From Microvirga thermotolerans (lineage in GTDB: Bacteria > Pseudomonadota > Alphaproteobacteria > Rhizobiales > Beijerinckiaceae), in contig NZ_CP045423.1 in NCBI RefSeq assembly GCF_009363855.1, forward strand, positions 1,766,001 through 1,830,000: 64,000 nt of DNA, written 5' to 3'. Shown here in pieces: positions 6,136 to 62,568 of this stretch; the first letter of the stretch is position 1; each line of letters starts with the position of its first letter. Both the position numbers and the translations under genes were made by a program. The notes under the pieces were generated by a model. It was not told where the DNA came from. It was given only the letters and a program-made list of their open reading frames with translations, and did not search any database.

Positions 6136-6230
6136 GAGATGGCCGGGCTCCCGGGGAAGCCCGGCCGAACGGGCGCCGGCGCGCCCCGGCGCTCTCGGGT
6201 CCATGTTGCTCGACGGAGGATATGGCGATG
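6136..6230 (+). ncRNA. ROSE-like RNA thermometer in the hsp20 leader
   Basis: Three successive hairpins precede the hsp20 start. Hairpin 1 pairs 6141-6149 with 6158-6166 (9 bp). Hairpin 2 pairs GCGCCGG (6173-6179) with CCGGCGC (6186-6192). Hairpin 3 places CCATGTTGCT (6201-6210) opposite the Shine-Dalgarno and start (GGAGGATATGG, 6215-6225). The TTGCT facing GGAGGAT is the signature of ROSE elements, which hide the ribosome site at low temperature in rhizobial small heat-shock genes. The lack of T-runs argues against these hairpins being terminators. Confidence 0.75.
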
Positions 6231-6680
6231 AGAAGCTTCGATTTTTCCCCTCTCTACCGCTCCACGGTCGGCTTCGACCGCCTCTTCGACATGCTCGACC
6301 AGACCAGGGCCGAGGCAGCGCCCGGCTGGCCGCCCTACAATGTGGAGAAGTGCGGCGAGGACCGCTACCGCATCACCATGGCCGTGGCGGGCTTTTCTCC
6401 CGACGAGATCGAGATCGTCCAGCAGGAGAACGCCCTGAACGTCACCGGACACAAGCCCCCGGAGGACGGGGACGTTCAGTATCTGCACCGGGGCATCGCC
6501 ACGCGCAGCTTCAAGCAGACGTTCAACCTGGCCGACTACGTTACGGTAACTGGGGCGAACCTCGACAACGGCCTGCTGACCATCGACCTGGTCCGCGAGA
6601 TTCCCGAGGAGATCAAGCCCCGCCGCATCGAGATCGCGAGCGACGGCCACAGGACGGTCGAGCACGGGAAGGCAGCCTAG
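6228..6680 (+). CDS. Hsp20 small heat-shock protein (HspA/IbpA class)
   Basis: A 150-residue cytoplasmic holdase chaperone that binds unfolding proteins under heat stress. It opens with the class A signature MRSFDFSPLYRSTVGFDRLF, then an alpha-crystallin domain (about 35-130, with FSPDEIEIVQQENALNV and the GLLTIDLVREIPE end). An ATG at 6222 also exists. The ATG at 6228 is preferred since GGAGGA then sits 7 nt away and the family normally starts MR(T/S)FDFSPL. It is controlled by the RpoH-like promoter and ROSE leader, and it probably shares a transcript with the second Hsp20 gene 64 bp downstream. Confidence 0.94.
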   Translation: MRSFDFSPLYRSTVGFDRLFDMLDQTRAEAAPGWPPYNVEKCGEDRYRITMAVAGFSPDEIEIVQQENALNVTGHKPPEDGDVQYLHRGIATRSFKQTFNLADYVTVTGANLDNGLLTIDLVREIPEEIKPRRIEIASDGHRTVEHGKAA

Positions 6681-44713: not shown

Positions 44714-46864
44714 ATGAATCAGAGCCCGCGCATCGAGCGTCGCCCCTCCGTCTGCCCGCATGACTGCCCGTCGACCTGCTCCCTCGACGTGGAGGTGATC
44801 GACGGGCGCTCCATCGGGCGCGTGCACGGTGCCAGGAGCAACAGCTACACGGCGGGGGTGATCTGCGCCAAGGTCGCCCGCTATGCGGAGCGCATCCACC
44901 ACCCGGAGCGGCTGCTTTACCCCATGCAGCGCACGGGCCCGAAAGGATCCGGGCAGTTCGAGCGCATCTCCTGGGACGAGGCGCTGGATGCGGTCGCCGA
45001 GGCCTTTCTCCGGGCCGAGGCCGGGTTCGGCCCGCAATCCGTCTGGCCCTATTACTACGCGGGCACCATGGGCTACGTGATGCGCGACGGCATCAACCGC
45101 CTGCGCAACGTGAAGAGATATTCCGGCCAGTATTCCACCATCTGCACGGCGACCGCCTATACGGGCTTCGTGGCGGGCACGGGCAGGCTCGCGGGCCCCG
45201 ACCCGCGCGAGATGGCGAAGGCGGACTGCGTGGTGATCTGGGGCACGAACGCGGTGCACACCCAGGTCAACGTGATGACGCACGCCCTGCGCGCCCGCAA
45301 GGAACGCGGCGCCAAGATCGTCGCCATCGACATCTACATGAACGCCACCATGAAGCAGGCGGACATGGCGCTGCTCGTGAAGCCAGGTACCGATGGCGCG
45401 CTTGCCTGCGCGGTGATGCACGTGCTGTTCCGGGACGGCTATGCGGACCGCGCCTACCTTGCGCGCTATACCGACCGTCCGGAGGAGTTCGAGGCCCATC
45501 TGCAGAGCCGCGATCCGCATTGGGCGGCCGCGATCACGGGCCTGAGCGTCGAGGAGATCGAAGCCTTCGCGCAGCTCGTGGGCGAGCGCCGCCGCACCTA
45601 TTTCCGCCTCGGCTTCGGCTTCGCGCGCCAGCGCAACGGCACCGTGAACATGCACGCGGCCTCCTGCATCCCGGCCGTCACGGGGGCATGGCAGTACGAG
45701 GGCGGCGGCGCCTTCCACAGCAACGGCGCGATCTATCGCTGGAACAAGACGATGATCGAGGCGCTCGACGTCGCCGACACGACCGTGCGCCGGCTCGACC
45801 AGTCCCAGATCGGCCGCGTCCTCACCGGCGACGCGGAGGCGCTGTTCCACGGGCCGCCCGTCAAGGCCATGCTGATCCAGAACACCAACCCGGTCTCCGT
45901 CGCCCCGGAGCAGGAGCTGGTGAAGAAGGGCTTCGCCCGCGAGGACCTTTTCGTGTGCGTGCACGAACAGTTCATGACCGAGACCGCGCTCATGGCGGAC
46001 ATCGTGCTGCCCGCGACCATGTTCATGGAGCACGACGACCTTTATTCGGCGGGCGGGCACCAGCATTTCCAGCTCGGTCCCAAGCTCGTGGAGCCGCCGG
46101 GGGAATGCCGCTCCAACCACGAGGTGATCCGCGCCATCGCCCGGCGCGTCGGCGCGTCGCATCCCGGCTTCGAGATGGAGCCGCGCGAGCTGATCGACTG
46201 GACCCTGAGGCATTCCGGCTGGGGATCCATCGAGGACCTGGAGCGCGAGGTGCACAGGGACGTGCAGCCCGCCTTCCGCGAGGCGCATTACCTCGACGGC
46301 TTCGCCTATCCGGACGGCCGATTCCGCTTCAAGCCGGACTGGACGCGCATTCCCTCGGGCAACAACGGGCCCATGGGGCCGTGGACCGCGCTCCCCGCCT
46401 TTCCCGACCATTGGCCCGTGACGGAGGAGGCGACCGGCGAGCATCCGTTCCGCCTCGCCACGAGCCCGGCCCGGAACTTCCTGAACTCCTCCTTCAACGA
46501 GACCCCGACCTCGCGGGCGAAGGAGGGGCGGCCGGAGGTGATGATCCATCCCCTCGACGCGGCGCCGTTCGCCATCGCGGACGGGGACTGGGTGGTCCTC
46601 CGGAACCGGCGCGGCGAGGTGTATCTGCGCGCGCGCCTCTTCGACGGTGTGCGCCGCGGGGTGCTGATCGCGGAAGGCATCTGGCCGAACGCGGCGCATC
46701 CCTACGGGCGCGGCATCAACACGCTCACCGGCGCGGATCAGGTCGCGCCCTACGGTGGCGCCGCGTTCCACGACAACCGGGTGGCGCTGGCGAAGGCGGA
46801 GCCGGGGCGCGGCTTCCCGCTGCCGGAGGCCGGTGCGGCGGAGGCGGAGCCCGCCGTTGTCTAA
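44714..46864 (+). CDS. Molybdopterin-dependent oxidoreductase (DMSO reductase superfamily)
   Basis: A 716-residue Mo/W-bisPGD enzyme. The N-terminal [4Fe-4S] motif is C14-x3-C18-x3-C22-x28-C51 (in SVCPHDCPSTCSLDVEV and TAGVICAKV). Further segments are CVVIWGTNAVHTQVNVMTHA (cofactor binding), HAASCIPAVTGAWQYEGGGA, LIQNTNPVSVAPEQELVKKG, LMADIVLPATMFMEHDDLYS and the C-terminal RLATSPARNFLNSSFNETPT barrel. There is no Tat-type signal, so it is cytoplasmic. It most resembles the anaerobic-dehydrogenase/FdhF-like group. The substrate is unknown and no electron-transfer partner is adjacent. Confidence 0.92.
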   Translation: MNQSPRIERRPSVCPHDCPSTCSLDVEVIDGRSIGRVHGARSNSYTAGVICAKVARYAERIHHPERLLYPMQRTGPKGSGQFERISWDEALDAVAEAFLRAEAGFGPQSVWPYYYAGTMGYVMRDGINRLRNVKRYSGQYSTICTATAYTGFVAGTGRLAGPDPREMAKADCVVIWGTNAVHTQVNVMTHALRARKERGAKIVAIDIYMNATMKQADMALLVKPGTDGALACAVMHVLFRDGYADRAYLARYTDRPEEFEAHLQSRDPHWAAAITGLSVEEIEAFAQLVGERRRTYFRLGFGFARQRNGTVNMHAASCIPAVTGAWQYEGGGAFHSNGAIYRWNKTMIEALDVADTTVRRLDQSQIGRVLTGDAEALFHGPPVKAMLIQNTNPVSVAPEQELVKKGFAREDLFVCVHEQFMTETALMADIVLPATMFMEHDDLYSAGGHQHFQLGPKLVEPPGECRSNHEVIRAIARRVGASHPGFEMEPRELIDWTLRHSGWGSIEDLEREVHRDVQPAFREAHYLDGFAYPDGRFRFKPDWTRIPSGNNGPMGPWTALPAFPDHWPVTEEATGEHPFRLATSPARNFLNSSFNETPTSRAKEGRPEVMIHPLDAAPFAIADGDWVVLRNRRGEVYLRARLFDGVRRGVLIAEGIWPNAAHPYGRGINTLTGADQVAPYGGAAFHDNRVALAKAEPGRGFPLPEAGAAEAEPAVV

Positions 46865-46951
46865 GTCTTAAGGCTATTGCCGGGCGCCCCTTGACCGTGG
46901 CGGAGCGAGCCTATCCTTAAGCTTGATCGTTTCCTTCCTTCAGGAGCCCCC

Positions 46952-47314
46952 ATGAGAGCCGTTCTCCGTCCGGTGCTGGCCGCCATCGCCATCGCCGCCT
47001 CGACCCATGCCGCCCTTGCCGCCGCCTCCAACATGCCGACCCAGTACCAGCCGGACCCGGCCCTCAAGACGGCGAGCATGGGCGAGCTGCAGTCCCGCGT
47101 GCGCCAGGCCTGCGCCGTGACCCAGGCGCGGATGCAGAACGTGAGCGAGCTCTCCATGTCGCGGAAATGCGACTGCTATGCGGGCCGCACCATGCGCGCC
47201 CTGAGCGCCGACGAGGTGCAGGCCTACCGCGATACCGGCGTGTTCAACGAGACCGCCCGCGCCAAGGCCCTTGGAGCGCTGGACGCCTGCAAGCTGCCGC
47301 GGCCGCAGATGTAA
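46952..47314 (+). CDS. Exported small hypothetical protein
   Basis: A 120-residue secreted protein. The signal peptide (LRPVLAAIAIAASTHAALAA) ends near residue 25. The mature part is helical, with Cys in RQACAVTQARM, the close pair KCDCYAGR and DACKLPRP, so two disulfides are likely. CAGGAGCCCCC precedes the ATG. No domain name is secure. The gene is separate from the Mo-enzyme (87 bp gap). Confidence 0.78.
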   Translation: MRAVLRPVLAAIAIAASTHAALAAASNMPTQYQPDPALKTASMGELQSRVRQACAVTQARMQNVSELSMSRKCDCYAGRTMRALSADEVQAYRDTGVFNETARAKALGALDACKLPRPQM

Positions 47315-56775: not shown

Positions 56776-57936
56776 TCAGGCCGGCGCGACGGCCCGCATC
56801 TTCACCCGCCCGCGCTCCAGCACGAGGCCGAGCTGCCCGTTCTTCAGCGCCAGGGCCTTTTCCCCGAACAGGGTCCGCCGCCAGCCGTGGAGAGCAGGGA
56901 CGTCGGCCGCGTCGTTCTCGGCGATGGCTTCGAGGTCGTCCACCGTGGCGATGATCTTGGGCGCAACGCCCTCCTGCTCGGCGACCGCCTTGAGCAGCAC
57001 CTTCAGGAGATCGACCACCGCGCCGGTGTTGCCGCGTCCCCGGCTGCGCTCCGGCATGGGCACCGTCGCCGGGTCGCGGGCGAGACCGCGCTCCACGGCC
57101 TCGAGAATGTCGGCCCCGGTGCGCGAGCGCTCGAACCCGTTCGGGATCGTGCGGAGGCGGCCCAGGGCCTCGACGCTGCGGGGCGCCGCGATGGCGATGT
57201 CGACGAGGGCGTCGTCCTTGAGGATGCGCCCGCGCGGCACGTCCCGGCTCTGCGCCTCCCGCTCGCGCCAGGCGGCAACCTCCATGAGCACCGCGACCTC
57301 CTTCGCCTTGCGCAGGCGCCCGGCCAGGCGCTTCCAGGCATGCTCCGGGTCGGCCTGGTAGGTCTCGGGGGAGGAGAGAATGGCCATCTCCTCCGCCAGC
57401 CAGGCGGAGCGGCCGTTCTTCTCGAGCTGGGCGGTGAGCGCCTCGTAGATCTTCACGAGATGGGTGACGTCGGAGAGGGCGTAGGTGAGCTGGGCGTCGG
57501 TGAGCGGGCGGCGGGACCAGTCGGTGAAGCGGGAGGACTTGTCGATGCGGGCCTTGGCGAGGTCGTTGGCGAGCTGCTCGTAGGAGACCGAGTCGCCGTA
57601 GCCGCACACCATGGCCGCCACCTGGGTGTCGAACAGGGGCGCTGGCACCATGCGGCCCAGGTTCCAGACGATTTCCAGGTCCTGCCGGGCGGAGTGAAAC
57701 ACCTTGACCACGCGAGGATCGGCCATCAGCCCGAGGAAGGGCTCCAGGTCCATGTCCGGGGCCAGAGGGTCGACCAGCACGGCATCGGCCGGGTCGGGAC
57801 CTGCCATCTGGATCAGGCAGAGCCGGGGGTAATACGTGGTCTCGCGCAGGAATTCCGTGTCGACGGTCACGAAGGGATGGGCGGCGAGGCGCTCGCAGGC
57901 CCTGCGGAGATCGGCGGTCGTAGAGATCAAGTCCAT
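56776..57936 (-). CDS. rnd: Ribonuclease D
   Basis: A 386-residue 3'-5' exoribonuclease that trims tRNA and other stable RNA precursors. The DEDD-Y catalytic set is visible: Asp and Glu in [20 protein letters not shown], Asp in [14 protein letters not shown], and the Tyr/Asp pair in [20 protein letters not shown]. An HRDC domain follows (about 210-290) and a second helical domain ends the protein. In related genomes rnd is commonly near aspS. Here a peptide-export locus separates them. Confidence 0.96.
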
Positions 57937-58077: not shown

Positions 58078-60246
58078 CTATGCCGCCCCCGTCGCATCCG
58101 CCAGACCCGGCGAGGTGTCGATGAAGGCGAGCGAGCCGGCATCCGTCGTGCCGGCGACCCGCCCGTCGCGAAGGACCACGATGCGGTCGGCGGCGCGAAT
58201 CGTATCGGGACGGTGGGCGATCACGACGCGCGTGATCCTCAGCTGCGCCAGCGCCCGGTTGACCTCCCGCTCCTTGTCGATGTCCAGGCTCGAGGTGCCC
58301 TCGTCCATGAAGAGGATCTTCGGCCTGCGATAGAGGGCGCGCGCCAGGAGGACGCGCTGGCGCTGGCCTCCGGAGAGGATCGTGCCCATGTCGCCGACGA
58401 GGGTGTTGTAGTTCATCGGCATGGCCATGATCTCGTCGTCGATCCCGGCCAGCCCGGCGCATGCGCGCATCCAGTCGAGGTCGGGAGCCGCTTCGAAGAA
58501 GGAGATGTTCTCCGCCAGGGTCCCCGACAGGAGATGATCGTCCTGCATGACGACGCCGACACGGTCCCGGAAGGCGCGGATCCCCACGTGATCGAGCGGC
58601 ATCCCGTCCACGAGCACCGTTCCCGTCCGCGGCCTGAACAGGCCGAGCATGATCTTGAGAAGGGTCGTCTTGCCGCCGCCCGAGGGCCCGGTGATCGCCA
58701 CGAACTCCCCGGGCTCGATCCTGAGGCTGGCGCCCGACAGGACGTCGGGTTCCGTGTCCGCATATCGGTAGGTGACGTCCCGGAGTTCGATCCCGCCCTC
58801 GATCGGCCGCTCCACGAGTCCGTGCGCTCCATGGCCGGGCTCCTTCTCGGTCAGGGCGATGTCGGACAGGCGGGACACGTAGAGGTCCAGAAGCCGGTAC
58901 TGGGCCGTCATCTCGATCAGGCTGGTGGCCTTGTCGAGGAACTGCTGCTTGTAGGACATGAAGGCATAGAGCATCCCGACGCTCATGTCGCCCGCCATGA
59001 CGGCGCGCGCGCCCAGATAGACCACGAGGACGTTCTCGAGCCCGTAAAGCAGCTGATTGGCCGTGGAGAAGCCGATCGAGAGGCGGTTCTGCCGCATCCC
59101 CTTGTTGATCATGTCGGCGTAGCGGTTCTGCCAGAGGGCCTCCCGGTCGGGCTCGCGGCCGAAGATCTTGATGCTCTGGATGGCCCGGACCGTTTCGATG
59201 AAGGTCGTATCCTCCTTCGCCCCGGCCTCGATCGCCTCCTCCTGCGCCTGGCGGAGGACGCGGTACGATACCAGCCGCAGCAGGGCGTAGAGCGCGAGGG
59301 CGGCGAAGACGACCGCGGAAAGGGCGGGGCTGTAGACGAGGATCATCGTGAGCGTCAGAACCGCCATGAGGCCGTCGACGGCCGCCTCGATGAGCCCCTG
59401 CGAGAAGAGGTTCTGAATCGGGACCGTGGCGCCGAACCGGGAGACGATGTCGCCGATATGCCGCTTCTCGAACCATTCGAGCGGCAGGCGCAGAAGGTGG
59501 TGGAAGAGATTCGCGCTCATCTGGAAGTTGAGCGCGTTTCCGAGGAACATCAGGACCTGGGCGCGGAGCCACGACGCGCCCACGTTGATGAGCAGCAGAA
59601 GCGTGAAGCCGATGGCAAGCGCGCCCAGGAGGCCCGTGTCCCCCTTCATGACGGCCTCGTCCACGACGAGCTGCATGTAGAAGGGGCTCGCCAGGGTGAC
59701 GAGCTGAAGGATCGCCGTCAGAACGAGCGCCTGTCCGAGGGCCCGGTTCATGCCTGCCAGACGCCCCCAGAACGCGGAGAGCGGCAGCTTGGCGGTTTCC
59801 TTCTTCCTCTCGAAGCCGCTAGTCGGCGTCAGTTCGAGGGCGACCCCGGTGAAATGCCTGCCGGCCTCCTCCAGGGTGCAGGTGCGGATGCCGAAGGCCG
59901 GATCGTGGATGACGATCCGCCGGCCCTTCACAGCCTTCAGCACCACGAAATGGCTCATGTCCCAGTGCAGGATGCACGGGGTCCTGATCGCGCCCAGCTG
60001 CTCGGGCTCCAGTCGCAGGCCGCGCCCGGTCATCCCGATGCGCTGCGCCAGCCCGAGGATGTCCCGGAGGGTCGTCCCCTTCAGGGACACGGAGAACTTG
60101 CGCCGCAGCCCGATCAGGTCGATCTCGTAGCCGTGATAGGTCGCGATCATGGCGAGGCAGGCAAGCCCGCATTCCGCCGCCTCGGACTGCATGAGCATCG
60201 GAAGGCGCGGGCCGCCCGCGAAATCGATCTTCTCGAGGACGTTCAC
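58078..60246 (-). CDS. Peptidase-containing ABC transporter (C39, double-glycine leader exporter)
   Basis: A 722-residue exporter that cleaves a leader after Gly-Gly and secretes the peptide. The N-terminal C39 peptidase is complete: Gln20 and Cys26 in LMQSEAAECGLACLAMIATY, His99 in LHWDMSHFVVLKAVKG and Asp115 in IHDPAFG. Six membrane segments follow (about 170-450). The ATPase has Walker A GPSGGGKTTLL (about 520), signature LSGGQRQRVLLARALY and Walker B ILFMDEGTSSLD. It starts at GTG, overlapping the HlyD stop as GTGA. In-frame sequence further upstream is an HlyD shadow. Confidence 0.95.
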   Translation of the reverse strand: MNVLEKIDFAGGPRLPMLMQSEAAECGLACLAMIATYHGYEIDLIGLRRKFSVSLKGTTLRDILGLAQRIGMTGRGLRLEPEQLGAIRTPCILHWDMSHFVVLKAVKGRRIVIHDPAFGIRTCTLEEAGRHFTGVALELTPTSGFERKKETAKLPLSAFWGRLAGMNRALGQALVLTAILQLVTLASPFYMQLVVDEAVMKGDTGLLGALAIGFTLLLLINVGASWLRAQVLMFLGNALNFQMSANLFHHLLRLPLEWFEKRHIGDIVSRFGATVPIQNLFSQGLIEAAVDGLMAVLTLTMILVYSPALSAVVFAALALYALLRLVSYRVLRQAQEEAIEAGAKEDTTFIETVRAIQSIKIFGREPDREALWQNRYADMINKGMRQNRLSIGFSTANQLLYGLENVLVVYLGARAVMAGDMSVGMLYAFMSYKQQFLDKATSLIEMTAQYRLLDLYVSRLSDIALTEKEPGHGAHGLVERPIEGGIELRDVTYRYADTEPDVLSGASLRIEPGEFVAITGPSGGGKTTLLKIMLGLFRPRTGTVLVDGMPLDHVGIRAFRDRVGVVMQDDHLLSGTLAENISFFEAAPDLDWMRACAGLAGIDDEIMAMPMNYNTLVGDMGTILSGGQRQRVLLARALYRRPKILFMDEGTSSLDIDKEREVNRALAQLRITRVVIAHRPDTIRAADRIVVLRDGRVAGTTDAGSLAFIDTSPGLADATGAA

Positions 60247-61484
60247 ATGCGCCCCCGGATGCTGAAGAGCGGTTCGAGGAGCCAGGCGAGGAGGGAGCGC
60301 TCCGCGAGGACGATGTCCGCCTGCACGGACATGTCGGGCTGGAGGGGGACCTGACGCCCGAAGGCCTGGATCCTCTGCTGCCTGAGACGTGCGGTGACGC
60401 GATAGGACGGCTCCCTGAGAGCGACCTTGCCGAACACCTCGTTGGGCGCCAGGACGACCTGCGAGACCGTTTCGACGACGCCCTCCTGGCTGCCGAACTG
60501 CTGATAGGGGAAGGCGTCCAGCATCAGGCGAACCGGCTGGCCCGGCTGCACGAACCCGATGGCCCGGCTCGGGACGAAGAGCTCGGCCCGCAATTCCGTC
60601 CCTTCCGGCACGAGGGTGAGGAGAGGGCGGTCGGAATCGACGATCTGGCCGGGGGCGACCTGCAGGGCCGTCACCCGGCCCGCGACGGGCGCCCTGACGA
60701 CCTGCGCCCCGCGCGCCTCGATCTCGGCCCGTTCCCGCTCCCGCTCGGCGAGACTCAGGCGCAGCTGGGACAGGCGCTCGCCCGCCTGCACGGGAAGCTG
60801 CTCGCGCTGCAGTTGCGCCTGCTCGAGATCGCGCGCGATGGCGGCCTGCTGCCGGTCGAGCTCGGCGAGAGTCTGACGGGCAGAGAGGAGGACCCCCTCC
60901 TGCTCCTGAAGGGCGACCTTCGTCCCGTTTCTCCTCTGATAGAGCTCGGCGAGGGTCTGCCGGCGCTCCTCCGCGGCCACGATGCGCTGAGCCTGGATAG
61001 CCCTTTGCACGGCGACGGCCTCCAGCTGCGCCCGGATGCTCTGGATCGACGCATCCAGACGGACGGCCTCGTTCGCGACCCGCGCGGGGTCGGACGCGAT
61101 CTGCTCCTTGATGAGCGCGATTTGGGCGTCCAGATGGGTCAGAAGGGTCGCGCCGAGCGTGCGGCCGCCTTCCAGGCCCTGTTGCGCAGCGACGGTGAAA
61201 AGGATCTGGCCGGCCACGACATGGTCGCCCTCGCGCACGTCGAGGTCCGTCAGAACCCCTCCGCGCTGAGCCGAAACCCGGACGACGCCAGCCTGCGAGA
61301 CGAGGATGCCCGTAGCCGTCTCCTTGCGGGCATATCCGGCCGTCGCGATGAAGGCGACCAGCATCCCCGTCGCGGCAAGGAGGAATCCCCCGAGCAGCCG
61401 CCATGACAACGGGGCGGCCGGCATGGAGGCCGCCGTGTGCTCGCGTCCCGTAAGAACCTGTGACCGGAATAACTGGTGCTTCAA
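60243..61484 (-). CDS. HlyD family adaptor of the peptide exporter
   Basis: The 413-residue periplasmic adaptor. Membrane helix at about 30-50 (RLLGGFLLAATGMLVAFIAT), lipoyl half 1 (VRVSAQRGGVLTDLDVREGD), a long Gln/Glu/Arg coiled coil (about 110-260), lipoyl half 2 (VRAPVAGRVTALQVAPGQIV) and a beta barrel up to PLQPDMSVQADIVLAERSLL, the usual end of bacteriocin/microcin-type adaptors. The start is TTG at 61484, the only suitable codon before the conserved LSWRLLGG. It is co-translated with the C39 ABC gene. A perfect 19-bp palindrome lies 20 bp upstream. Confidence 0.93.
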   Translation of the reverse strand: MKHQLFRSQVLTGREHTAASMPAAPLSWRLLGGFLLAATGMLVAFIATAGYARKETATGILVSQAGVVRVSAQRGGVLTDLDVREGDHVVAGQILFTVAAQQGLEGGRTLGATLLTHLDAQIALIKEQIASDPARVANEAVRLDASIQSIRAQLEAVAVQRAIQAQRIVAAEERRQTLAELYQRRNGTKVALQEQEGVLLSARQTLAELDRQQAAIARDLEQAQLQREQLPVQAGERLSQLRLSLAERERERAEIEARGAQVVRAPVAGRVTALQVAPGQIVDSDRPLLTLVPEGTELRAELFVPSRAIGFVQPGQPVRLMLDAFPYQQFGSQEGVVETVSQVVLAPNEVFGKVALREPSYRVTARLRQQRIQAFGRQVPLQPDMSVQADIVLAERSLLAWLLEPLFSIRGRM

Positions 61485-61504
61485 AGTCAGGAACTGCCCT
61501 TAAA

Positions 61505-61523
61505 TGTGAAACTTAGTTTCACA
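61505..61523. promoter_or_regulatory. 19-bp perfect palindrome upstream of the HlyD gene
   Basis: TGTGAAACTTAGTTTCACA, two 8-bp arms with a 3-nt centre, ends 21 bp before the HlyD start. Its position would let a bound protein block transcription or translation of the exporter. No cognate regulator is known. Confidence 0.6.
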
Positions 61524-61584
61524 GACGGGGCGGTTTGACAAGACGCGGGGACGACGGGGAAGGCGGCACAGGCCTCACGGAAGA

Positions 61585-61599
61585 TTGCGCAGCTGCAAG
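61585..61599. promoter_or_regulatory. Degenerate lux-box-like dyad
   Basis: TTGCGCAGCTGCAAG shares the CTGCAAG right arm and a TTGC left arm with the perfect site at 61650. It may be a second, weaker site. A further half-site (CTTGCAG) lies at 61671-61677. Confidence 0.35.
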
Positions 61600-61649
61600 A
61601 AATCCGACCGTGCCGGCAGTGCGGCAGAGCACATGGCTGGCGCATATTT

Positions 61650-61665
61650 CTTGCAGATCTGCAAG
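61650..61665. promoter_or_regulatory. lux/tra-box-like perfect palindrome
   Basis: CTTGCAGATCTGCAAG is a 16-bp perfect dyad. Its inner 12 bp (TGCAGATCTGCA) equal the core of the Agrobacterium tra box bound by the quorum-sensing regulator TraR. It lies 133 bp upstream of the leader-peptide gene and 166 bp from the exporter start. Confidence 0.5.
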
Positions 61666-61679
61666 CTCGCCTTGCAGAG

Positions 61680-61691
61680 TTCACATGTGAA
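61680..61691. promoter_or_regulatory. 12-bp palindrome in the peptide-gene promoter region
   Basis: TTCACATGTGAA is a perfect dyad 107 bp before the peptide ATG. It repeats the TTCACA/TGTGAA arms of the 19-bp palindrome near the HlyD gene, so the same protein may bind both. Confidence 0.4.
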
Positions 61692-61797
61692 TTGTTCCGA
61701 GCTAAACCAGAGGTTGGTGGGAATAAGAAATGTTATCACGTCTTATTTCTTGAGCTTTGGGCCCATGAGGAACAAAGCTCTTTTGGAGGATTACAAG

Positions 61798-62088
61798 ATG
61801 AAAATCGCGATTTCCGAGCTGCATCCGGACGATCTGGAGCGTGTATCTGGAGGGATGATGCGCATCCCGCTTGATGTCTATCTCTCCTTGTATGGCGGTG
61901 TCAGCTATGGAGGCTCGGGAGGCAATACTTCGACCGGTATCGGAGCGGGTGGGCTCAAGAACGCCCCGGTCTCCAGCACGCCACCGAGGCAGAATCCCGT
62001 CGTGTCGCGCTATGCAAGAATGCCCAGGGGCGGAATGTCCGCCTGGGATTATGTGACAAGCCCTGATTCATGGTCGTTCAGGCCGTAA
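61798..62088 (+). CDS. Double-glycine leader peptide, likely substrate of the C39 exporter
   Basis: A 96-residue precursor. The leader KIAISELHPDDLERVSGG fits the double-glycine pattern (hydrophobic residues at -4, -7 and -12, ending GG at 18-19), so cleavage after Gly19 would leave a 77-residue product. The product is Gly/Ser-rich at first (YGGVSYGGSGGNTSTGIGAG), then cationic (RQNPVVSRYARMPRGGMSAW). It has no cysteine, so no disulfide or lanthionine is possible. TGGAGGA lies 8 nt before the ATG. GC content is lower than in neighbours. It is divergent from its presumed exporter. Known bacteriocin or signal families do not match by eye. Confidence 0.82.
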   Translation: MKIAISELHPDDLERVSGGMMRIPLDVYLSLYGGVSYGGSGGNTSTGIGAGGLKNAPVSSTPPRQNPVVSRYARMPRGGMSAWDYVTSPDSWSFRP

Positions 62089-62104
62089 CGCCAGCTGAGG
62101 AGGG

Positions 62105-62138
62105 GCTGGGACTGCTGCTTTGCGGCTGCAATCCCAGC
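62105..62138 (+). terminator. Hairpin after the leader-peptide gene
   Basis: GCTGGGA-C-TGC (62105-62115) pairs with GCA-A-TCCCAGC (62128-62138), one mismatch. It sits between two convergent genes. Only TTCC follows, so it may be a weak or bidirectional terminator. Confidence 0.45.
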
Positions 62139-62178
62139 TTCCAGCACGCATTCTGCTCCGTGAGCATGGGCGGGGGCT

Positions 62179-62568
62179 TTATTTTGCAACTGTCGTCAAC
62201 TTGCGACGCTCTTTCGCCTGCCGCTCCGCCCGCTTCATGAGCCAATCGATGATATTCCTGTCCACGACGAGCCCGGTCTCGGCGTCGACGAGGCGCTCGA
62301 TCCGGTCGGCTCTGAAGCCCCGGTAGCCGTCGTCGGCCATGTCGATGCCGCCCAGGATCGTCTTGCCGGGACCGACCTTCAGCTCACGCGCGATGATCCA
62401 GCGCCGGCTCGGGTTGCCGGCCTGATCCGTATAGTGAAGCTCCAGCGCGCCCTCCATGGGATAGACGTGCCACGCCCCCTCCGTCCGCTCCTCTACGGGA
62501 GCGTTCCGGGCCGGCCTCAGCAGCGATGCGACATGAGCGGGAATCATGGATAGCATATGGCGATTCAT
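62179..62568 (-). CDS. WYL-like domain protein without a DNA-binding domain
   Basis: A 129-residue protein. The core ALELHYTDQAGNPSRRWIIA, followed by DMADDGYRGFRADRIERLVD, follows the WYL ligand-binding pattern (strand, R-x-I, then G-Y-R-x-F-R-x-D-R-I). No helix-turn-helix precedes it. The C-terminus is basic (LMKRAERQAKERRKL). The ATG at 62568 lacks a strong ribosome site. It is convergent with the leader-peptide gene and next to aspS, so it may be part of the peptide locus (regulator or resistance factor) or an unrelated neighbour. Confidence 0.75.
   Translation of the reverse strand: MNRHMLSMIPAHVASLLRPARNAPVEERTEGAWHVYPMEGALELHYTDQAGNPSRRWIIARELKVGPGKTILGGIDMADDGYRGFRADRIERLVDAETGLVVDRNIIDWLMKRAERQAKERRKLTTVAK

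What the first reader, a model, noticed from the sequence alone, without database searches (positions are those of the whole stretch)
58078..62568. Self-contained double-glycine peptide secretion locus inserted between rnd and aspS
Seen: a C39-peptidase ABC exporter with all catalytic residues (Gln20, Cys26, His99, Asp115), a co-translated HlyD adaptor, and a divergent 96-aa precursor whose first 19 residues are a double-glycine leader. Known: C39 exporters cleave such leaders and secrete bacteriocins, microcins or signal peptides. Inference: the 77-aa Gly-rich, cationic, Cys-free product is the substrate, and with no modification enzyme or obvious immunity gene in the locus it may be an undescribed alphaproteobacterial peptide family. 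The locus interrupts a housekeeping block.
Basis: partly seen in the sequence, partly recalled or inferred. Interest (0 to 1): 0.9.

Follow-up and report, generated by a model that had tools for sequence, protein, structure and literature searches.

The report
Swappable bacterial peptide-export locus and substrates
A soil bacterium carries a small export machine that very probably trims and secretes a 77-residue peptide of a new family; related species keep the same machine at the same place but pair it with other peptides, including very short ones that hardly change and look like possible chemical signals.

Summary
In detail: an intact C39-peptidase ABC exporter (58078-60246, -), an overlapping HlyD adaptor gene (60243-61484, -) and a divergent 96-aa precursor (61798-62088, +) with a 19-aa double-glycine leader. 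The precursor is a real gene: homologues beside the exporter in two other Microvirga genomes, dN/dS 0.17-0.47, and a leader profile built without its family ranks its leader first in the window. The exporter lies between rnd and aspS in 26 of 47 genus genomes with rnd; the window's sister lacks it. The 129-aa gene at 62179 is flank, not cassette. By profile such leaders occur in 21 of 26 carriers and 0 of 22 non-carriers (another profile gives one leader-like exception). Substrates differ: hlyD-divergent, mostly unrelated cores in 9 carriers, and two mutually exclusive classes of tiny, near-invariant core, RR[IV]I[VLI]Y (15) and R[KQ]VNEYEGQH(R) (7). The window's genome has neither, but has a second, orphan precursor. 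Best reading: a peptidase-containing type I exporter of unmodified microcin-like or signal peptides at an exchangeable locus. Cleavage, killing and signalling were not tested.

The parts
58078..60246 (-). C39-peptidase ABC exporter (peptidase, membrane and ATPase domains), 722 aa, GTG start
   Evidence: Pfam domains above cut-off; catalytic residues in place; PCAT1 is the nearest solved structure, E 2.2e-99
60243..61484 (-). HlyD-family adaptor, 413 aa, TTG start, overlaps the exporter start by 4 bases
   Evidence: HlyD_3 E 7.2e-20; TIGR01843 E 3.1e-41 but below its cut-off
61505..61523 (.). perfect 19-base palindrome TGTGAAACTTAGTTTCACA about 20 bases upstream of hlyD, operator-like
   Evidence: 0 expected in 100 shuffles at up to 3 mismatches; similar arrangement by eye in G009, G015, G023
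61650..61665 (.). 16-base palindrome CTTGCAGATCTGCAAG between hlyD and the precursor; not seen in relatives
61798..61854 (+). double-glycine leader of the precursor, 19 aa (MKIAISELHPDDLERVSGG)
61855..62085 (+). predicted secreted core, 77 aa, 8141 Da unmodified
   Evidence: cleavage not tested
62179..62568 (-). 129-aa gene of unknown family: host flank, not part of the cassette
   Evidence: between rnd and aspS in 17 of 19 empty sites; no Pfam or NCBIfam match
56776..57936 (-). rnd (3'-5' exonuclease plus HRDC), left flank
   Evidence: open frame and synteny in relatives; the gene name itself was not tested by a family search

Best explanation
The locus is a peptidase-containing type I secretion module. 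The exporter's C39 domain recognises the leader (ISELHPDDLERVSGG), cuts after Gly19 and passes the unmodified 77-aa core through exporter, HlyD adaptor and an outer-membrane channel encoded elsewhere. Shown here: intact catalytic and ATPase motifs, precursor and exporter inherited together in three species, purifying selection on the precursor, association of such leaders with this exporter across the genus. Inferred: cleavage, export, the channel and the function. The product most likely acts outside the cell between bacteria, as a microcin-like antagonist or a kin- or strain-recognition peptide, because the exporter is kept while hlyD-side cores are replaced, the locus is patchily present and exporter alleles are exchanged between close relatives. 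The same exporter probably also serves the orphan precursor near 3,798,453.
For: Exporter intact. Family A precursor divergent from hlyD beside the exporter in 3 of 3 genomes; in G023 exporter, adaptor and precursor lie together on the other side of the 129-aa gene. dN/dS 0.47, 0.29, 0.17. Held-out leader profile finds the precursor first in the window. Leader profile at E<=0.05: 21 of 26 exporter carriers, 0 of 22 others, 25 of 28 hits beside the exporter (Fisher P 3.2e-9, kinship ignored, profile rows partly from the same loci). Precursor beside the exporter in 21 of 26 carriers by inspection. Exporter relatives outside Microvirga also stand beside double-glycine frames in 7 of 11 loci inspected. 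Exporter exchange: G042/G026 rnd 98.2%, aspS 98.8%, exporter 74.0%, with a break inside the exporter gene. PF03412 finds only one other C39-type exporter in the genome, whose catalytic Cys position reads Thr by eye.
Against: No immunity gene in the locus, unlike described microcin and Cdz clusters. Four carriers (G008, G026, G042, G045) have only an unlinked precursor and one (G034) none found, so exporter and local precursor can part. A leader-like frame occurs in G039, which lacks this exporter. Five genomes without this exporter carry other C39 exporters at 46-53% identity elsewhere. The tiny near-invariant cores of relatives fit signalling better than killing. No consensus sigma-70 promoter found between hlyD and precursor. 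The precursor was not folded. No experiment.
Confidence: 0.7

Rival explanations
1. The locus is mainly a signalling exporter. The tiny cores RR[IV]I[VLI]Y and R[KQ]VNEYEGQH(R) are secreted signals of two mutually exclusive types, and the larger hlyD-side peptides, the window's included, are co-exported effectors or divergent signals.
For: RRII class in 15 carriers, RKV class in 7, no genome with both (chance of no overlap 0.0005 if genomes were independent). Nine of ten RKV core positions invariant while leaders diverge; synonymous codon changes in both classes. Conserved upstream region of the RRII genes.
Against: No receptor or regulator gene found with either class; the window's genome, G003, G009 and G034 have neither class, so it would not explain the window's peptide directly. 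The kinship of the genomes weakens the exclusion statistic.
Confidence: 0.25
2. The secreted peptide is a structural or biofilm component, as described for the EbfG proteins of Synechococcus elongatus, rather than a toxin or signal.
For: No immunity gene in the locus; Gly-rich polar core; precedent of a C39 exporter for biofilm proteins (PMC4997328, passages).
Against: Cores of the hlyD-side peptides differ strongly between species, unusual for a structural role; exporter allele exchange.
Confidence: 0.12
3. The 96-aa frame is not expressed or is not the exporter's substrate.
For: The exporter persists without a local precursor in five carriers; no consensus promoter.
Against: Homologues in two species at the same position, purifying selection, ribosome site.
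Confidence: 0.04

Closest known systems
Class II microcin loci of Enterobacteriaceae (such as microcin V, CvaAB)
   Same: Double-glycine leader, 60-90-aa unmodified core, C39 exporter and adaptor (definition from passages of PMC10233263)
   Different: No immunity gene in the locus; precursor family unrelated to any Pfam or NCBIfam model above cut-off; activity unknown
Cdz contact-dependent inhibition system of Caulobacter crescentus
   Same: Alphaproteobacterial type I exporter and adaptor divergent from small Gly-rich exported proteins; exporters more conserved than substrates (passages of PMC5380434)
   Different: One precursor, no CdzI-like gene; core has prolines and polar stretches and one GxxxGxxxG, which the Cdz search filtered out
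PCAT1 (4ry2) and ComA peptidase-containing transporters
   Same: Same domain order; aligned over query residues 19-699 with PCAT1, E 2.2e-99
   Different: Gram-positive; no adaptor there (recalled)
PteB/EbfG of Synechococcus elongatus and HetC of Nostoc
   Same: C39 exporters in Gram-negative bacteria with developmental rather than antibacterial roles (PMC4997328 passages; PMC10986499 outline and abstract)
   Different: No sequence comparison made; functions there do not carry over
NHLP exporters (TIGR03796)
   Same: Best NCBIfam model for the exporter, E 5.2e-158
   Different: 527 bits against a cut-off of 853; no modification enzyme

Membership tests
Peptidase-containing ABC transporter (PCAT) | C39 peptidase, ABC membrane and ATPase domains in one chain with Gln/Cys/His/Asp intact | tested here: met
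Peptidase-containing ABC transporter (PCAT) | Cleaves its substrate after the double glycine during export | not testable with these tools
   needs biochemistry
Class II microcin | Leader of 15-18 aa ending in GG or GA | tested here: met
   19 aa counted from the ATG, one more than the stated range
Class II microcin | Core of 60-90 aa | tested here: met
   77 aa
Class II microcin | C39 exporter and membrane fusion protein | tested here: met
Class II microcin | Immunity gene with the precursor | tested here: not met
   only 90 bases between precursor and the 129-aa flank gene, which occurs in 17 of 19 empty sites; immunity elsewhere not excluded
Class II microcin | TolC outer-membrane channel | not tested
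   not searched in the genome
Class II microcin | Antibacterial activity | not testable with these tools
   needs assays
Cdz-like system | Exporter operon divergent from small exported proteins | tested here: met
Cdz-like system | Hydrophobic glycine zipper without interrupting proline or polar stretches | tested here: not met
   GRAVY -0.34, one GxxxGxxxG, prolines in the core
Cdz-like system | Small transmembrane immunity protein | tested here: not met
   none in the locus; the Cdz paper says immunity genes were hard to find in other Cdz-like loci
NHLP or lanthipeptide export system | Exporter above the family cut-off and a modification enzyme | tested here: not met
   527 of 853 bits; no such gene between rnd and aspS

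The most novel reading that the evidence does not exclude
Microvirga uses a swappable C39-exporter locus for peptide communication: two mutually exclusive pheromone types with near-invariant cores (6-13 residues around RR[IV]I[VLI]Y, 11-14 around R[KQ]VNEYEGQH) are exported through it, while divergent larger peptides such as the window's 77-aa core are co-exported effectors. This would be double-glycine-leader peptide signalling with pherotype-like groups in Alphaproteobacteria.
Probability: 0.25. Interest if true: 0.85.

Novelty: new variant of a known kind. Interest (0 to 1): 0.6.

Why it matters
Double-glycine peptides of Gram-negative bacteria are often predicted but rarely tied to natural variation of one transporter. 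Here one exporter lineage at one chromosomal site of one genus is kept while its substrates are replaced, with empty sites, exporter alleles exchanged between sister species and peptide cores short enough to synthesise. That makes it directly testable whether such loci serve killing, kin recognition or signalling in soil and nodule bacteria.

Tried and rejected
Rejected: the 129-aa gene as immunity or cassette member (in 17 of 19 empty sites). Rejected: a recent plasmid origin visible in PLSDB; the best plasmid exporter is 56.2% identical (Neorhizobium) and the precursor has no plasmid match at E 0.01. Rejected: membership of NHLP exporters. Set aside: a second exporter of the genome near 3.712 Mb, likely a degenerate C39-like type because the catalytic Cys position reads Thr by eye.

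Dropped before counts: weak hits. In some searches only hits with an RRII-type core were counted; only the seven with an RKV-type core. Outside the genus the best weak hits were E 0.002, 9e-4 and 4e-4; these loci were not inspected. One dropped hit, G039:C2:2716128 (MDEKQAPVALTEEELAQITGGG..., 216-aa frame, E 2.4e-4), is leader-like in a genome without this exporter and is an exception to the association.

Led nowhere: regular-expression scans for leaders gave many chance frames, so a profile was used. A shared operator across all loci was not found.

Literature. None of the listed titles concerns this Microvirga locus (one search listed 15 of 19 papers with Microvirga and bacteriocin; one search found none); the core strings occur only in one unrelated hit, a 1902 nursing journal. 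The library holds open-access papers only. Seen as passages: PMC5380434, PMC4997328, PMC10233263. Seen as outline and abstract: PMC10986499. All other papers: search listings only.

Structure prediction of the precursor never ran: machine full.
Full report
What is there. The window comes from an unnamed 3.82-Mb single-contig genome. Among the 78 exporter loci kept, those of 69% identity or more are all from records named Microvirga, so I take the genus as Microvirga. Between rnd (56776-57936, -) and aspS (from 62716, +) lie the C39 exporter, a HlyD adaptor gene overlapping the exporter's start by four bases, a divergent 96-aa precursor and a 129-aa gene of unknown family.

The precursor is real. 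Of 48 genus genomes, two others have clear homologues, G023 (60%, E 4e-22) and G015 (53%, E 2e-19); two further hits of E 0.005-0.008 were not counted. All three precursors lie divergent from hlyD. Nei-Gojobori dN/dS is 0.47 (G000-G015), 0.29 (G000-G023) and 0.17 (G015-G023); by pN/pS the leader is more constrained than the core. The core keeps IP.DVY, NPV..RYAR and GG.SAW. In 397 genomes drawn from the family the profile finds these three and five weak hits of E 0.002-0.009.

The site. rnd was found in 47 of 48 genus genomes. The exporter lies beside it, in the rnd-aspS interval where that could be seen, in 26 and is absent there in 21; in 19 of these 21 aspS was in the fetched stretch, and the 129-aa gene stands between rnd and aspS in 17 of the 19. 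In G005, G009 and G025 of the 26, aspS was not in the fetched stretch. The window's sister on a rnd+aspS tree, G031 (93% identical, support 91), is empty; presence needs at least 8 changes on that tree, against a shuffled mean of 15.7 (quick tree, many weak forks). In G023 exporter, adaptor and precursor sit on the other side of the 129-aa gene, which suggests that the three move together and the 129-aa gene does not.

Exchange. The exporter tree has two starred Microvirga clades, one with the window and seven others, one with 17; G005 was too short to place. Host sisters G042 and G026 (starred) carry exporters of different clades: rnd 98.2%, aspS 98.8%, exporter 74.0%. Along the exporter, identity is 62-68% over the first 480 aligned columns and 86-97% over the last 240, the mark of recombination inside the gene: peptidase and membrane parts differ, the ATPase end is shared. 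The flanks align at the DNA level and the adaptor region does not.

Leaders track the exporter. A leader profile built without family A and without rows from the window's genome gives, in the window plus one other stretch of its genome, the precursor leader (10.6 bits) and an orphan precursor (9.4 bits) as the best two; the next is 3.1. Over the 47 oriented loci (703,140 bases) all 26 hits of at least 12 bits lie in rnd-aspS intervals that carry the exporter; the window's own precursor, at 10.6, is below that line, and many profile rows came from those loci, so the independent part is the held-out G015 (15.5) and G023 (19.7) leaders and the lack of hits elsewhere. Genome-wide, with a profile that held rows of all these families, 21 of 48 genomes have hits at E 0.05 or less; all 21 carry the exporter, none of 22 without it has one, and 25 of 28 hits are beside the exporter (Fisher P 3.2e-9, kinship ignored). 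Five of the 22 carry other C39 exporters at 46-53% identity. Against this stands one leader-like frame in G039, a genome without this exporter, found with another profile. By inspection 21 of 26 carriers have a precursor beside the exporter, four (G008, G026, G042, G045) only an unlinked one, and G034, whose HlyD match is partial, none that I found.

Two kinds of substrate. First, hlyD-divergent precursors in 9 carriers (G000, G003 with two, G004, G009, G011, G015, G023, G032, G040); outside family A their cores show at most weak similarity to each other (best E 0.004, over a Gly-rich stretch). Second, tiny precursors. RR[IV]I[VLI]Y cores, 6-13 residues in all, lie between the exporter's end and rnd on the opposite strand in 15 carriers, with a conserved upstream region; G007 has a second copy with RRIIMH. 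R[KQ]VNEYEGQH(R) cores, 11-14 residues, occur in 7 carriers: G004, G008, G015, G023, G026, G042, G045. No genome has both; if genomes were independent the chance would be 0.0005, but they are kin. Nine of ten positions of the second core are invariant while the leaders diverge, and codons vary synonymously in both classes, so the peptide rather than the DNA is conserved. In G015, G026, G042 and G045 the second class stands at one syntenic site away from the exporter; the matching stretch of the window, 46814-47029, has no such hit. In 397 genomes of the family, profiles of both classes gave no hit outside Microvirga better than 9e-4 or 4e-4; those were not inspected.

The window's genome has neither tiny class. 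It has the orphan precursor MTAYELNEQELGQVAGG + 56 aa (APIIVYAAPITFDL...), from 3,798,453, with several [AR]PI repeats. The likeness of APIIVY to RRIIVY is by eye and may be chance.

Outside Microvirga, relatives of the exporter at 51-68% identity stand beside double-glycine frames in 7 of 11 loci inspected, some with two hydrophobic Gly-rich cores, so the lineage as a whole looks like a double-glycine peptide exporter.

Regulation. A perfect 19-base palindrome (61505-61523) lies about 20 bases upstream of hlyD; similar arrangements are visible by eye at that place in G009, G015 and G023. Most clade-II loci have a different arrangement there, GCAACAT...ATGTTGC. No regulator gene is in the cassette.

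How it most likely works. Leader recognition and cleavage by the C39 domain and export through a tripartite channel follow from what is known of this transporter family (PMC10233263, passages). That the 77-aa core is the substrate is a well-supported inference; I put it at about 0.85. What the peptide does is open. Variation of the hlyD-side peptides under a conserved exporter, patchy presence and exchange resemble the pattern described for Cdz-like systems (PMC5380434, passages) and favour antagonism or kin recognition; the missing immunity gene and the tiny invariant cores of relatives favour signalling. The stated 0.7 is for the explanation as worded, which leaves antagonist and recognition peptide together.

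Membership. It meets the tested features of a peptidase-containing ABC transporter. It meets the leader, core-length, exporter and adaptor features of a class II microcin locus, but no immunity gene was found, so I do not file it as one; it may still work like one. It fails the glycine-zipper filter and the immunity feature of Cdz-like systems.

Verdict. The thing is a new substrate family of a known kind of exporter; the surprise is the genus-wide swap locus and the two tiny, near-invariant peptide classes in relatives.

Noticed in passing
L221:3454-3675 (+), G000:C1 from 3798453: Orphan double-glycine precursor in the window's genome: 17-aa leader and a 56-aa basic core with several [AR]PI repeats, near a TrpF-like and an ornithine-cyclodeaminase-like frame (names by eye).
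   Followed up: partly
L224:1302-9812 (G000:C1 near 3.707-3.716 Mb): A second type I exporter with HlyD-like gene downstream of a 1516-aa frame; its C39-like domain reads Thr at the catalytic Cys position by eye, so probably non-cleaving.
   Followed up: partly
window 6143-6234 (+): ROSE RNA thermometer (RF00435, 50.6 bits, cut-off 45).
   Followed up: no
window 61505-61523 and 61650-61665: Two perfect palindromes between hlyD and the precursor; the first has look-alikes at the same place in three related loci.
   Followed up: partly
L210 (G034) and L220 (G015): G034 has a partial HlyD match and no precursor found, perhaps a decaying locus; rnd of G015 matches in two pieces.
   Followed up: no
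L159 (G039:C2:2716128): Leader-like 216-aa frame in a genome without this exporter.
   Followed up: no
L327:5483-5800 region (G001:C233 from 39482): Unlinked double-glycine precursor MKTAIQILDDAQLKDVGGG + Gly-rich core; its leader and the start of its core resemble those of G011 by eye.
   Followed up: no
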